Shown here: piece after piece, positions 39,808 through 44,148 of the stretch
Numbering within the stretch: the first letter of the stretch is position 1
Layout: each line of letters opens with the position of its first letter
DNA from: Candidatus Saccharimonadota bacterium
GTDB taxonomy: Bacteria; Patescibacteriota; Saccharimonadia; Saccharimonadales; Saccharimonadaceae
DNA: 64,000 bases
Direction: 5' to 3'
NCBI GenBank assembly: GCA_017433855.1
Contig: JAFRGM010000006.1
Span: forward strand, 1 to 64,000
The notes under the pieces: generated by a model
Database searches by the model: none
Seen by the model: the letters and a program-made list of their open reading frames with translations, nothing else
What the model was told of the DNA's origin: nothing
Program-made: the position numbers and the translations under genes

Positions 39808-40680
39808 ATGAAGAACTTACATACCCCAGTATTACTATCTGAAGTGGTAGCGAACCTCGCACCAAAACCTGGCGCAACATATTTAGATTTAACCGCAGGT
39901 TATGGAGGGCACGCTAAAGAAATTTTGGATGTGACACGACAGTATAAAAATTCCGTCTTGGTGGACAGGGATGAGTTTGCCGCCGATTACTTAAGGCAAA
40001 AATTCCCACCAGAAATCAAGATTATCAATCAGGATTTTTACAGTGTGGTGCTACAGCTTTTACAGTGTGGAAACACTTTTGATATGATACTAGCGGATTT
40101 TGGAGTATCTTCATTGCAACTGGATCGGCCAGACCGCGGTTTTTCATTTCGCGAAGATGGCCCTCTAGATATGCGGATGGACCGGCGCCAATCTGTAACG
40201 GCAAGCGATATAGTGAACCATTATAGCGAACGGGATCTAGCAGAGCTTTTTGTCAAATACGGCGAAGAAAAATCAGGTCGTGCCAAAATGCTCGCTAGGG
40301 AAATAGTCACTCATCGTCCCATTACTACTACGAAGGAGCTTGCTAGCATCATTGCATCGAAGTCTAAATATAGCCACACCCACCCAGCCACTAGAGTATT
40401 CCAGGCCATTCGGATAGAGGTCAACAACGAGCTTAGCGAGATAGAGCAAACTCTACCACTCCTACCCAAGCTCCTAAATCCCGGTGGCCGAGTCGCCATT
40501 ATTACTTTCCATAGTTTAGAGGATCGTCTCGTCAAAGATTTTTTCAAAGAATCTACGAGTCATGGTGAGGAGTCGGAGCTTTCAGTTATTACTAAAAAAC
40601 CGCTCGTTGCAACGCCTGATGAGTTAGTTATCAACCCGCGCGCCCGGAGTGCTAAACTGCGAGTGGCAGTGCGGAATTGA
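39808..40680 (+). CDS. rsmH: 16S rRNA (cytosine-1402-N4)-methyltransferase
   Basis: The protein has 290 residues from ATG 39808 (an earlier in-frame ATG at 39763 lies before the promoter). It starts H-T-P-V-L-L-S-E-V, has the SAM-binding D-L-T-A-G-Y-G-G-H, and D-R-G-F-S-F-R-E-D-G-P-L-D-M-R-M-D, all typical of MraW/RsmH. It methylates C1402 in the ribosomal P site. It opens the division and wall cluster, as is usual, but mraZ is missing upstream. Confidence 0.95.
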   Translation: MKNLHTPVLLSEVVANLAPKPGATYLDLTAGYGGHAKEILDVTRQYKNSVLVDRDEFAADYLRQKFPPEIKIINQDFYSVVLQLLQCGNTFDMILADFGVSSLQLDRPDRGFSFREDGPLDMRMDRRQSVTASDIVNHYSERDLAELFVKYGEEKSGRAKMLAREIVTHRPITTTKELASIIASKSKYSHTHPATRVFQAIRIEVNNELSEIEQTLPLLPKLLNPGGRVAIITFHSLEDRLVKDFFKESTSHGEESELSVITKKPLVATPDELVINPRARSAKLRVAVRN

Positions 40681-40715
40681 TAAAATAAAAACAACAAAAA
40701 TAAAAAGGAGGCAAT

Positions 40716-40781
40716 ATGCCAAAGCAAATATTAGTAGCGAACAAATCCCGCAAGCAAACCATTAAGGTAAACTTTCGCTAA
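40716..40781 (+). CDS. 21-residue leader-type ORF
   Basis: A 22-codon frame (start M-P-K-Q-I-L-V-A-N-K, end K-V-N-F-R) has a perfect AAGGAGG site 6 nt before the ATG. It is rich in Lys, Arg and Gln. It ends 8 bp before the first hairpin of the structured region at 40790-40979, the position of a regulatory leader peptide. It could also be a real micro-protein. Confidence 0.55.
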   Translation: MPKQILVANKSRKQTIKVNFR

Positions 40782-40789
40782 AAAATACT

Positions 40790-40979
40790 CAGCGGGGTCC
40801 CCACAGTGACCCCGCTGGCAAACCCAAAACTCTAACTGCGATATGGACCTAAAGGTCCACCAAATAGAGTTTTCACAAGGAGAGTGTGAAGTGTATGACC
40901 TTCCCGGGGCAACTTTTCTTAGTTACTTATAGCTCTGCTAAGAAATGTCCCTGGACTATGGGGTTGCCATGTGAAAACT
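40790..40979 (+). promoter_or_regulatory. Switch-like structured leader upstream of the ftsL-like gene
   Basis: CAGCGGGGTC (40790-40799) pairs perfectly with GACCCCGCTG (40808-40817) without a U-run. AAAACTCTA (40826-40834) pairs with TAGAGTTTT (40865-40873), enclosing GGACC/GGTCC. AGTTTTCAC (40868-40876) pairs with GTGAAAACT (40971-40979), enclosing GGCAAC/GTTGCC and CTTAG/CTAAG. The second and third outer helices share 40868-40873, so they exclude each other. The gene starts 45 nt downstream with a GAGG site. Confidence 0.6.
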
Positions 40980-41023
40980 AAAATCAAAACAAAGATAAAG
41001 ATAACCAAGCGAGGAATAGTAAA

Positions 41024-41374
41024 ATGTTAACGCAAACTTATGTGTCTAGAAGGGAAACCGCATTTACCGGTAGTTTTGCACGCGGCCGTAATACCATTAG
41101 GCACGAAAAGCGTAGTTTAGGCTCCATCTCCCAGATTGTCATTATTAGCCTTATTACTCTCGTTTTTGGCTTAATCTATGTTGCTGAAGGCACCAAAGCC
41201 ACCTCGTTTGATTATGAAATCTCCGCCGTAGAATCTGAAATCTCCGAAATGACCGCCCGACGCGATGACCTTGCCGTAGAAAAAGCGCGTCTTAGTTCTG
41301 TTTCCGCTGCCAAAAACAGCACCGTGGCTGCCAACATGGAAAATGCCACAGTCACCGGCTACGTTACCGACTAA
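41024..41374 (+). CDS. ftsL: FtsL-like division protein
   Basis: The protein has 116 residues. It has a basic cytoplasmic N-terminus, one membrane helix near 34-53, and a coiled-coil region of ~45 residues (S-A-V-E-S-E-I-S-E-M-T-A-R-R-D-D-L). This is the layout of FtsL/DivIC proteins, which have little sequence conservation. Its position between rsmH and the penicillin-binding protein is the usual ftsL place. It would join FtsQ/DivIB to activate septal wall synthesis. Confidence 0.7.
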   Translation: MLTQTYVSRRETAFTGSFARGRNTIRHEKRSLGSISQIVIISLITLVFGLIYVAEGTKATSFDYEISAVESEISEMTARRDDLAVEKARLSSVSAAKNSTVAANMENATVTGYVTD

Positions 41375-41390
41375 GTGATATAATATAAAT

Positions 41391-43118
41391 ATGTCGCGCA
41401 TCAAAATCTTACGATATTTGACTTTAGCTGCTTTAGGAATTATCTTGACGCGGCTATTTTTTATCCAAATTATTGAACATGACGCTTGGGTGGCTAAGGC
41501 CAACGAGCAACATACTCTGCTTGAAACCATTACGGCCAAACGTGGCGAAATCTATATGCTAGACGGTAATGACCCAGTGGCAGTAGTCTTAAACCAAACT
41601 GTTTACCAAGTTATTATAGACCCAGCTATTACTCCACAAGACGAACTGCAAACCCTACTTGACGAAACCGTTGAAAAACACGCCAACCTAGACGAAGTAT
41701 ACAATATCGAGGGACTTAGATATTACATTGTGGCTCGTAATGTGCCTTATTCTAGCGCCGTCAAAATTGCCGAAAAAGGCCTCGGCGGTGTTTGGCTTAA
41801 AGAGAGCAACGCCCGTGTATATCCAGAAGGGGAGATGGCTTCCACTGTGCTTGGTTTTGTTAATGCTGATGGTATTGGGCAATACGGTGTAGAAGGTTCA
41901 CTCAATCACCTTTTGTCCGGCAAAGACGGCCTACTTAAGACTATTTCCGATGTTAATAATGTCGCTCTATCTATTGGAGACAACAACATTAAAATACCCG
42001 CCGAAGACGGCAAGAACGTTGTGCTAACTATAGATCGTACTCTAGAAAAAAATGTCGAAGAGATGACCGAGCAAGCCTTAGCTAGTAGCGTTGCTACCAA
42101 TGCGGCGGTGCTTATTATGGACCCTAACAACGGTGAGGTTCTTGCCATGACCACCATCCCTGGTTACAACCCAGCTGACTATGGTAATGTCAAAGATGCC
42201 TCCAGCTATATCAACCAGGTTACAGAAGTACCATACGAACCAGCCTCCATTTGCAAAACTTTCACATATTCTGCCGCCATCAACGAGGGTAAGATGACGG
42301 CCGACACAACATACTTTAACCAAGGCTATGTCATGGTAGATGGTTGGAAAATTCAAAACGCTGAACAGCGCGCCTCAATTTATGGCACTATCGACATGCG
42401 TACGGCGCTTTATTGGTCGCTTAACTCCGGCTCAATTCAAGCCCTTAAACTTCTCGGTGATGACCCAGATAGCATCAACCAAAAAGGCAGGGAATTACTG
42501 TACGATTATTATTACAATAAGTTCCGCCTAGGCCGCCCCACCGATATCGAACTCATAGAAGCGGTCGGCTACATCGAAGATCCCAACGAAGGCTGGGGAC
42601 GCAACTCTACCTACGCCAATATGACTTTCGGCCAAAACCTTGGTATTACTATGATTCAAACCGCTACGGCCTTTTCAGCTGTGGTAAATGGTGGCATTTG
42701 GCGCACCCCTACCATCGTGGCTGGCACTCTAGAAAACGGTCGCCTTACTCCACTAGAGTCTAACGCTATAGAGGAGCAGATTCTTAAGGCTGACACTTCT
42801 GCTGCTATGCGTAGTATGCTCGTCAATAACCGCAGCTACAAAGTACGCGCCGGTATTGATAAACCCGGTTACGATGTGGGTGGTAAATCTGGTACCGCGC
42901 AGGTAATACGGGATGGCGTCTATGATGACACTTATGCCGAGCTAGTTGGCTCGTACATAGGTTTCGTGGCGCCTAGTGGGGAAATGCCAAGCTATGTTAT
43001 TATGATTAAAATGTGGGGCGAAGGCCAAAGCGTAGGCAGTGGTGAGCCGATGGCACTCTTCGATACTCTATCTAATTATATTATCAATTATTTAAAAATT
43101 AGGCCAGGTGGAGTATAA
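41391..43118 (+). CDS. ftsI: Penicillin-binding protein, FtsI/PBP2 class
   Basis: The protein has 575 residues with a signal-anchor helix (8-25), a dimerisation domain and a transpeptidase domain. The active-site serine is in E-P-A-S-I-C-K-T-F near residue 283, S-L-N near 345 and K-S-G-T near 500. The S-x-x-K motif contains a cysteine (S-I-C-K), less usual than S-T-F/M-K. It cross-links septal peptidoglycan. TATAAT lies 6 nt before ATG 41391. The ftsL-like gene ends 16 bp upstream. Confidence 0.88.
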   Translation: MSRIKILRYLTLAALGIILTRLFFIQIIEHDAWVAKANEQHTLLETITAKRGEIYMLDGNDPVAVVLNQTVYQVIIDPAITPQDELQTLLDETVEKHANLDEVYNIEGLRYYIVARNVPYSSAVKIAEKGLGGVWLKESNARVYPEGEMASTVLGFVNADGIGQYGVEGSLNHLLSGKDGLLKTISDVNNVALSIGDNNIKIPAEDGKNVVLTIDRTLEKNVEEMTEQALASSVATNAAVLIMDPNNGEVLAMTTIPGYNPADYGNVKDASSYINQVTEVPYEPASICKTFTYSAAINEGKMTADTTYFNQGYVMVDGWKIQNAEQRASIYGTIDMRTALYWSLNSGSIQALKLLGDDPDSINQKGRELLYDYYYNKFRLGRPTDIELIEAVGYIEDPNEGWGRNSTYANMTFGQNLGITMIQTATAFSAVVNGGIWRTPTIVAGTLENGRLTPLESNAIEEQILKADTSAAMRSMLVNNRSYKVRAGIDKPGYDVGGKSGTAQVIRDGVYDDTYAELVGSYIGFVAPSGEMPSYVIMIKMWGEGQSVGSGEPMALFDTLSNYIINYLKIRPGGV

Positions 43119-43125
43119 TTATAGC

Positions 43126-44148
43126 ATGAGTATAAACGAAGAAATGTTTTACGGGCTTTTGCTTTCTCTTGCTAGTTTTCTTTTGTCGATGGTGCTTACT
43201 CCAGTTTACACCCATTTTGCATACAAATATCACTTTTGGAAAAAGCAAAAACAAACCACGGTAGATGGCAAGGCTTTACCCATCATGGCGAGTCTGCATA
43301 AGCATAAGTTTAAACGCGCCTTTCCAACCATGGCTGGGCTTATTGGTATTATCGCTGTTACTGTAGTTACCTGGGTTTTTAACCTAGATCGCGGCCAAAC
43401 CTGGCTCCCGCTTGTAGGCTTTTTGGGCGGCTCTTTTGTAGGAGTTATAGATGATTCTATCAATATCTTTGGTTCTGGGCGTGGTGCAGCCGGGCTGCGC
43501 GGGCCAGTCAAATTCTTGCTAATTACAGCCGTAGGTATTGTCTTAGGGTGGTTCTTCGCAGTTAAACTCGGCTGGACTTCTATTCTCGTTCCGTTTGTTG
43601 GCAATATCGAAATCGGCGTAGTCGCCATGATTGCTATTTTTGCTTTTGCCGTCGTTGCTACCAGTAATGCCGTCAATATTACAGACGGTTTGGATGGCCT
43701 ATCTGGGGGCCTTTCTATGCTGGCCTACGGTGCTTTTGGTGTTATCGCCCTCTTTCAAGGCAACGTACTACTCTTTGGCTTCTGTATGACAGTAGTAGGG
43801 TGGCTTTTATCCTACATTTGGTTCAATGTTCCACCAGCACGGTTTATGATGGGCGATACTGGCTCATTTGCGCTGGGCGCTGGCCTTGGTGTGGTTGCTA
43901 TGATGACTAACTCATTCTTACTTTTGCCAGTCATCGGCCTTATGTTTGTTATAGAAACCGGCTCTAGCCTTATCCAACTTGCTGCCAAGCGTTTCTTGCA
44001 TCGTAAAATTTTTATTTCTGCGCCATTACATCATCATCTCGAGGCTAAGGGCTGGGGCGAAGCCAAAATCGTGATGCGCTTTTGGATTATGGCCGGCGTC
44101 TGTGCGCTTCTAGGTGTCTTTCTAGCCGCTGTCGGGGGCGCCATCTAA
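43126..44148 (+). CDS. mraY: Phospho-N-acetylmuramoyl-pentapeptide transferase
   Basis: The protein has 340 residues from ATG 43126, with about ten membrane helices. Family motifs are G-V-I-D-D near 106, N-A-V-N-I-T-D-G-L-D-G-L near 179, and the late F-I-S-A-P-L-H-H-H-L-E histidine loop. It transfers MurNAc-pentapeptide to undecaprenyl phosphate to make lipid I. TATAAT ends 6 nt before this ATG, inside the 3' end of the previous gene. The stop TAA overlaps the ftsW ATG (TAATG). Confidence 0.95.
   Translation: MSINEEMFYGLLLSLASFLLSMVLTPVYTHFAYKYHFWKKQKQTTVDGKALPIMASLHKHKFKRAFPTMAGLIGIIAVTVVTWVFNLDRGQTWLPLVGFLGGSFVGVIDDSINIFGSGRGAAGLRGPVKFLLITAVGIVLGWFFAVKLGWTSILVPFVGNIEIGVVAMIAIFAFAVVATSNAVNITDGLDGLSGGLSMLAYGAFGVIALFQGNVLLFGFCMTVVGWLLSYIWFNVPPARFMMGDTGSFALGAGLGVVAMMTNSFLLLPVIGLMFVIETGSSLIQLAAKRFLHRKIFISAPLHHHLEAKGWGEAKIVMRFWIMAGVCALLGVFLAAVGGAI

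What the first reader, a model, noticed from the sequence alone, without database searches (positions are those of the whole stretch)
40716..40979. Leader ORF plus mutually exclusive helices before the division operon
A 21-codon ORF with a perfect AAGGAGG is followed by a 10-bp hairpin and two outer helices that share 40868-40873 and so cannot form together. The second one encloses a multi-branched fold (GGCAAC/GTTGCC, CTTAG/CTAAG). The arrangement suggests attenuation or a riboswitch that controls ftsL, ftsI and mraY. I find no match to riboswitch classes I know.
Basis: partly seen in the sequence, partly recalled or inferred. Interest (0 to 1): 0.7.

Follow-up and report, generated by a model that had tools for sequence, protein, structure and literature searches.

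The report
Structured RNA before Saccharibacteria division genes
Between the genes rsmH and ftsL of a tiny gut Saccharibacterium lie a conserved 21-amino-acid microprotein gene and a folded RNA not seen in the RNA-family library, which together probably tune production of the cell-division proteins.

Summary
The rsmH-ftsL gap (40681-41023) holds two conserved things.

(1) A 21-codon gene (40716-40781) under selection at the protein level (pN/pS 0.23). It belongs to a 19-26-residue microprotein found after rsmH in 35 of 36 other loci of the order and 3 of 3 further class-level loci, but in 0 of 22 loci outside the class.

(2) A structured RNA (about 40836-40964) with strong covariation: 14 of 15 pairs change on both sides; score 0.631 against 0.221 shuffled. 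It is nearly universal in this genus (84 of 88 genomes), occurs in one sister genus, and was found in no other genus sampled. It sits between rsmH and ftsL in nearly every locus. Rfam has no match.

Transcription attenuation is unlikely: Rho was not found, no + strand terminator, and the ftsL Shine-Dalgarno is no more hidden than in shuffles.

Best reading: a cis-acting post-transcriptional control element for ftsL-ftsI-mraY, linked to translation of the microprotein. Partner unknown.

The parts
39811..40680 (+). rsmH (mraW), upstream gene
   Evidence: Pfam PF01795, E 9.7e-93
40705..40711 (+). Shine-Dalgarno AAGGAGG of the small ORF
   Evidence: the same heptamer in 112 of 131 distinct leaders
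40716..40781 (+). 21-codon microprotein ORF MPKQILVANKSRKQTIKVNFR + TAA
   Evidence: ORF in 131 of 132 distinct leaders, the other cut at a contig end; pN/pS 0.231, third codon positions most variable; class-wide homologues
40790..40817 (+). GC-rich hairpin after the ORF, no T-tract on the + strand
   Evidence: 10 bp perfect; a hairpin at this place is usual in relatives; in some leaders it is extended by a helix (P0) that includes the stop codon, but not here
40836..40964 (+). conserved structured RNA element (extent of model R1)
   Evidence: 122.6 bits, E 1.7e-26 (this sequence was in the training set); covariation on 100 leaders
40844..40859 (+). helix P2 (TGGACC/GGTCCA), flanked by AYATGG and CCRCCAA
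   Evidence: 4 of 5 modelled pairs change on both sides; 99.4% of cells paired
40865..40869 (+). conserved TAGAG
   Evidence: alignments A1-A3
40872..40890 (+). local hairpin TTCACA/TGTGAA of the main group; its 5' strand can also form the long-range helix
   Evidence: sequence; variants such as L003 TTCGCA/TGCGAA and L185 TTCCA/TGGAA, read by eye
40881..40888 (+). conserved AGAGTGTG; a second copy lies upstream of the core in 27 of 129 leaders, mostly seen in the P2 loop
40894..40903 (+). conserved unpaired TATGACCTTC
   Evidence: GACCTTC exact in 118 of 129 leaders; partly selected by the motif search that fetched L031-L091
40904..40954 (+). helices P3 (40904-40908/40950-40954) and P4 (40912-40922/40938-40948)
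   Evidence: all five P3 pairs and all five modelled P4 pairs change on both sides
40923..40937 (+). 15-nt terminal loop TTACTTATAGCTCTG
   Evidence: type A loop in 100 of 129 leaders, another kind in 11, a sister-genus kind in 9, 9 unclassified; partly selected
40955..40961 (+). 3' flank ACTATGG (consensus ACTAAGA)
41011..41015 (+). Shine-Dalgarno GAGGA of ftsL
   Evidence: not sequestered beyond shuffles
41024..41374 (+). ftsL-like gene
   Evidence: position, size and weak DivIC match, E 0.19
41391..43118 (+). ftsI (PBP transpeptidase)
   Evidence: PF00905, E 1.9e-45
43108..44148 (+). mraY-like transferase
   Evidence: PF00953, E 1.9e-26

Best explanation
The gap encodes a 21-residue microprotein of a class-wide family, followed by a genus-level structured RNA inside the same mRNA. 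The RNA most likely acts in cis, after transcription has passed it, on translation or stability of the ftsL-ftsI-mraY part of the message. SHOWN: the ORF is under protein-level selection; the RNA folds (P2, P3, P4) with compensatory change; it keeps unpaired motifs (TAGAG, AGAGTGTG, TATGACCTTC, a 15-nt loop); it occurs once in nearly every genome that has it, almost always between rsmH and ftsL. INFERRED: the unpaired motifs bind a trans factor (a protein, or less likely a small molecule), and translation of the ORF feeds into the fold, since in some leaders its last codon and stop codon form a covarying helix directly upstream of P2, and in the window's subset the TTTCACA strand can pair either locally or around the whole 3' domain. 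UNKNOWN: the factor, and the sign of the effect.
For: Covariation: 97.2% of cells paired against 77.0% shuffled; 313 against 64 double changes; slid structures score 0.13 or less. G-U pairs are frequent, which fixes the + strand. Taxon spread: 94 of 392 genomes, 84 of 88 own-genus; of the 4 misses, 3 have no rsmH in the assembly and the fourth (G360) keeps a degenerate copy, read by eye. Synteny: rsmH 129 of 131, ftsL/ftsI 128 of 129. Motif re-use: 14 extra TGACC in 11 sister-genus leaders against 1.55 expected; 27 of 129 leaders with more than one AGAGTGTG. Helix through the stop codon: at least 7 bp in 22 of 106 leaders against a mean of 10.3 and a maximum of 17 in 200 partner swaps. No Rho.
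Against: No expression data. The ftsL Shine-Dalgarno is not sequestered beyond chance (unpaired 0.475, shuffled 0.413). The stop-codon helix is absent from the window and from most leaders. Other genera of the same class keep the microprotein without this RNA, so the RNA is not essential to it. In the main genus extra TGACC copies are not enriched (17 against 14.8).
Confidence: 0.5

Rival explanations
1. A small-molecule riboswitch of a new class: the conserved junctions and the 15-nt loop form an aptamer, perhaps for a cell-wall precursor.
For: Riboswitch-like mix of covarying stems and fixed unpaired bases; genes downstream are wall and division genes; no Rfam class.
Against: The terminal loop is replaced in some leaders and lost in a few (L145, L146, L156) while the rest stays, unusual for a ligand pocket; short motifs are repeated in extra hairpins, more like protein sites; no expression platform found.
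Confidence: 0.2
2. Ribosome-controlled attenuation: stalling or termination on the 21-codon ORF decides which of two alternative folds forms.
For: Strong Shine-Dalgarno and conserved peptide; last codon and stop codon lie in a covarying helix in part of the genus; alternative pairings of one strand in the window's subset.
Against: Neither outer helix is general; no terminator or Rho; codon columns show no run of one regulatory amino acid; the ORF exists class-wide without the RNA.
Confidence: 0.17
3. A trans-acting RNA: a 3'-processed or independent small RNA made from the dcw message, as UpsM is in Rhodobacter.
For: Compact stable fold and an accessible conserved loop; a precedent of an sRNA in a dcw leader (PMC5089854, passages).
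Against: No sigma-70-like promoter in 40600-41100; no near-perfect second copy or complement of the two 15-mers in the 86%-complete genome.
Confidence: 0.08
4. A passive structure that separates rsmH from ftsL, for example a barrier to exonucleases or an RNase site, with no sensing.
For: Other families have just a GC hairpin at this place; no expression platform seen.
Against: A passive barrier needs no fixed unpaired sequence, yet GACCTTC, GTGT and the loop are near-invariant.
Confidence: 0.05

Closest known systems
UpsM / extended 5' leader of the Rhodobacter dcw cluster (PMC5089854)
   Same: A structured leader RNA with a small ORF in the division and cell-wall cluster, suggested by its authors as a riboswitch candidate (passages).
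   Different: UpsM lies before mraZ, ends at an intrinsic terminator and yields a free sRNA; its sORF overlaps the terminator and is limited to R. sphaeroides. Here the RNA lies between rsmH and ftsL, has no + strand terminator, and the peptide is class-wide.
Leader-peptide attenuators and uORF-controlled leaders
   Same: Short ORF with a strong Shine-Dalgarno before a leader that can adopt alternative pairings.
   Different: Peptide conserved across a class with changing downstream RNA; no run of a single regulatory codon; no terminator; alternative helices not general.
Orphan cis-regulatory RNA motifs found by comparative genomics (riboswitch candidates)
   Same: Covarying stems with fixed unpaired motifs, one copy in nearly every genome, fixed gene context.
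   Different: Not in Rfam 15; confined to two genera of Saccharibacteria; carries a conserved microprotein gene in front.
Ribosomal-protein autoregulatory leaders
   Same: Structured leader inside a polycistronic message, probably read by a trans factor.
   Different: Downstream genes are division and wall genes; neither 15-mer has a near-perfect second copy in the own genome, so no rRNA-mimic evidence.

Membership tests
Known Rfam RNA families (riboswitches, leaders, sRNAs) | Covariance-model match at the curated score | tested here: not met
   Window at gathering: only 2 tRNAs. 40400-41300 up to E 5: one sub-threshold hit to C. elegans ceN115. 18 relatives up to E 1: three sub-threshold hits, none in a consistent place
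Structured RNA (any) | Compensatory base changes beyond shuffles and slid controls | tested here: met
Transcription attenuator | Intrinsic terminator or Rho | tested here: not met
   No + strand terminator-like site in 40600-41100; two on the - strand. Rho_RNA_bind over cut-off in 0 of 30 relatives, found in 9 of 14 control genomes
Translational riboswitch with sequestered Shine-Dalgarno | ftsL ribosome site hidden by the leader more than by chance | tested here: not met
   Unpaired probability 0.475 against 0.413 in shuffles, 76 leaders with GAGGA; folding only, no probing
Riboswitch | Direct ligand binding that changes expression | not testable with these tools
   needs in-line probing and reporters
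Leader-peptide attenuator | Mutually exclusive helices conserved across relatives | tested here: inconclusive
   Outer helix 1: 6 of 67; outer helix 2: 13 of 67 above 95% of swaps; medians 0.52 and 0.48. Stop-codon helix 22 of 106
Leader-peptide attenuator | Translated ORF with selection on the peptide | tested here: met
   pN/pS 0.231 on 103 distinct 21-codon ORFs; translation itself not shown
Known protein family for the microprotein | Profile match in Pfam, NCBIfam or PDB sequences | tested here: not met
   No match for 16 of 27 members (11 too short to scan) in Pfam and NCBIfam; none with the profile in PDB. Very short queries have little power
UpsM-like dcw leader sRNA | Intrinsic terminator ending a free sRNA before mraZ | tested here: not met
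   the definition is from PMC5089854

The most novel reading that the evidence does not exclude
A new class of regulatory RNA that works as one unit with a class-wide microprotein: translation of the microprotein, or the microprotein itself, is read by the RNA fold to set the level of septal wall synthesis (FtsL, FtsI, MraY) in bacteria that lack Rho and use no terminator here. The repeated UUUUGACC and AGAGUGUG elements would be binding sites for a dedicated RNA-binding factor.
Probability: 0.25. Interest if true: 0.82.

Novelty: new variant of a known kind. Interest (0 to 1): 0.62.

Why it matters
Saccharibacteria divide on or near host bacteria, and little is known of how they time division. 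A covarying RNA placed in front of ftsL-ftsI-mraY, with a conserved microprotein ahead of it, gives a concrete handle on that control. The microprotein would also be among the shortest class-wide conserved genes in a division cluster. With no Rho found and no terminator, the mechanism must be one other than ordinary transcription attenuation.

Tried and rejected
Rejected: (a) ORF starting at ATGACC inside the RNA: open for 28 codons in the window, but in L008 the frame stops after 12 codons and stem lengths differ by amounts that are not multiples of three (read by eye). (b) Promoter reading of TTCACA-N16-TATGAC: spacing varies and the sister genus lacks it (by eye); the scanner finds no promoter. 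(c) rRNA mimic or trans target by long complement: not seen. (d) Kissing of AGAG with the loop CTCT: fits type A loops but does not covary, and fails where the loop is of the other kind (by eye). (e) Phage origin: 0 exact matches of the motif in viral contigs. (f) Hidden ftsL ribosome site. (g) Helix P1 as a general feature: not significant by swaps in the main group or in three other groups, though those groups vary little there.

Led nowhere: first leader-extraction scripts had faulty patterns and were replaced; their counts are not used. The automatic search for the RNA core in leaders failed for 5 of 131; 3 were then placed by a simpler pattern and 2 (L174, L217) dropped, hence 129. could be parsed for 103 leaders, 67 in the main group; for 106. 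The 11 sister-genus leaders were left out. One search used 76 leaders with GAGGA and suitable length. L043 was dropped (contig starts inside).

Literature: searches found no report of this RNA or microprotein in their listings; (Saccharibacteria with ftsL) returned 0 papers. Only open-licence PMC papers are held.

Full report
WHERE IT IS. The window lies in a Saccharibacteria genome assembly of 596,208 bases in 11 contigs, 85.8% complete. The order of genes is rsmH (39811-40680), a 343-base gap, an ftsL-like gene (41024), ftsI (41391) and a mraY-like gene (43108). The 61 named relatives found by an exact motif search of a bacterial and archaeal species collection are 60 records titled Saccharibacteria and one titled uncultured bacterium, many of them from ruminant gut sites.

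CHECK OF THE OBSERVATION.

THE ORF. After removing duplicates I had 131 distinct leaders (120 of the window's genus, 11 of a sister genus), each with the ORF; one more locus (L043) starts inside the element. The heptamer AAGGAGG precedes it in 112 of 131, GGAG in 130. In 103 distinct 21-codon ORFs the mean column entropy is 0.475, 0.307 and 1.174 at codon positions 1, 2 and 3, and pN/pS is 0.231 by a simple pairwise count. Related sequences are not independent, so the ratio is descriptive. In other genera and families, 35 of 36 usable rsmH loci carry an ORF of 19-26 codons at the same place, of the type MPIQVKNLSRAYKVKVRV (one further locus had too little sequence; the exception, L113, has a 31-codon ORF that fits loosely by eye). 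One further locus of the order and two of other orders in the class also have it (L246-L248), whereas none of 22 loci from outside the class does (one search gave out loci for only the best-matching of 113 genomes with rsmH, and 25 of these loci were examined). Searches find no relative in Pfam, NCBIfam or PDB sequences, but such short queries have little power. The pattern of two alternating hydrophobic strands around a polar centre suggests a small beta hairpin; this is inference.

THE RNA. A covariance model from 30 leaders finds the element in 94 of 392 genomes of the order, in 2 of 156 genera: 84 of the 88 own-genus genomes seen in that listing, and 10 of a sister genus. Of the four own-genus misses, three have no rsmH in the assembly and the fourth (G360) has a degenerate copy by eye. 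In 36 own-genus genomes searched by plain DNA comparison, all but G008 and G021 had some match, several of them short. In the distinct leaders, rsmH lies just upstream in 129 of 131 and ftsL or ftsI downstream in 128 of 129. Two genomes show two copies (G326, G397); one pair looks identical (L039, L050) and may be an assembly effect.

STRUCTURE. On 100 aligned leaders the modelled pairs form in 97.2% of cells (shuffled 77.0), 14 of 15 pairs show change on both sides, and the covariation score is 0.631 (shuffled 0.221; slid by one column 0.13 at most). The alignment was fitted to the model, which leans towards its structure; the slid controls and the size of the effect make that a minor concern. 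Standard G-U pairs are common, which would be mismatches on the other strand, so the + strand is the RNA. The core, 5' to 3': AYATGG - P2 - CCRCCAA, TAGAG, a local hairpin in the main group, AGAGTGTG, TATGACCTTC, P3, P4 with a 15-nt loop TTACTTATAGCTCTG, and ACTAAGA. Of 129 leaders with a placed core, 100 have that loop type, 9 a sister-genus type, 11 another type and 9 were not classified. L031-L091 were fetched by the motif itself, so motif counts are inflated by selection; the stems were free in that pattern.

I asked whether a leader's own strand pairs better with its own partner than with partners from other leaders. The second outer helix exceeds 95% of swaps in 13 of 67 main-group leaders (window included) but has a median percentile of 0.48; the first does so in 6 of 67, median 0.52. 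So they belong to some lineages. The GGCAAC/GTTGCC helix was found only in the window. In L003 one strand (TTCGCA) is complementary both to the local partner and to the distal one, with matching changes in both, so a local switch is plausible there (by eye).

A HELIX THROUGH THE STOP CODON. In part of the genus the last codon and stop codon of the ORF pair with the strand just before P2: at least 7 contiguous bp in 22 of 106 leaders, against a mean of 10.3 and a maximum of 17 in 200 random reassignments; partners follow the codons (CGC with GTG or GCG, CGT with ATG or GCG; TAG with CTA or TTA, TAA with TTA). In fold predictions the stop codon is paired in 39 of 65 leaders. A ribosome ending translation there would have to open this helix. 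The window itself lacks it.

WHAT SPEAKS AGAINST SIMPLE MECHANISMS. There is no terminator-like site on the + strand; the two found are on the - strand. The Rho RNA-binding domain is over its cut-off in 0 of 30 relatives while 9 of 14 control genomes have it. The ftsL ribosome site is slightly more open than in shuffles (0.475 against 0.413, p 0.046 two-sided, 76 leaders). Neither 15-mer motif has a near-perfect second copy or complement in the genome: the next best have 2 and 3 mismatches.

MOTIF RE-USE. Sister-genus leaders carry 14 additional TGACC copies where 1.55 are expected, often as TTTTGACC in extra hairpin loops; in the main genus there is no such excess (17 against 14.8). 27 of 129 leaders have more than one AGAGTGTG-like copy, commonly in the P2 loop, where shuffles give 0.6 copies in total. 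These counts are not corrected for common descent. They suggest recognition sites for a trans factor.

COMPARISON. Rfam 15 has no family for it. The closest published arrangement I saw is the dcw leader with the sRNA UpsM in Rhodobacter (PMC5089854, passages), which differs in place, terminator and ORF conservation. PMC11665869 (passages) mentions riboswitches in Patescibacteria only as tools to build, and PMC8040213 (term search) mentions no Saccharibacteria. Searches showed no report of this element.

VERDICT. A genuine, previously uncatalogued structured RNA plus a class-wide microprotein. That they exist and are conserved is firm; that they regulate ftsL-ftsI-mraY after transcription is the likeliest reading, at about even odds; the sensor and the direction of control are open.

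Noticed in passing
L092-L112 and L158-L171, between rsmH and ftsL: A 19-26-residue microprotein gene (type MPIQVKNLSRAYKVKVRV) is conserved across the order and class, usually followed by a GC hairpin, often with ACCAAA after it, even where the RNA is absent.
   Followed up: partly
L151, L152, L153, L155 (leaders of the sister genus): Repeated TTTTGACC motifs, some in AT-rich hairpins of the form ATTTATTTTGACCGATAAA, upstream of the RNA core; up to four extra copies in L155.
   Followed up: partly
30 relatives searched: Transcription terminator Rho was not found over the family cut-off in any of these Saccharibacteria genomes.
   Followed up: partly
window 40790-40817, - strand: The hairpin after the ORF looks like an intrinsic terminator on the minus strand (followed by AGTATTTTTT), although no minus-strand gene was identified there.
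   Followed up: no
L023, L026, L208, L210, L214, L215: In these leaders the 15-nt loop is replaced by an unrelated conserved loop of the kind GATGCGGTGGTGCGG, while the rest of the RNA is kept.
   Followed up: no
G326 (L180, L204) and G397 (L039/L050, L218): Two genomes show two copies of the element; in G397 they look identical, in G326 different, which may reflect assembly mixing.
   Followed up: no
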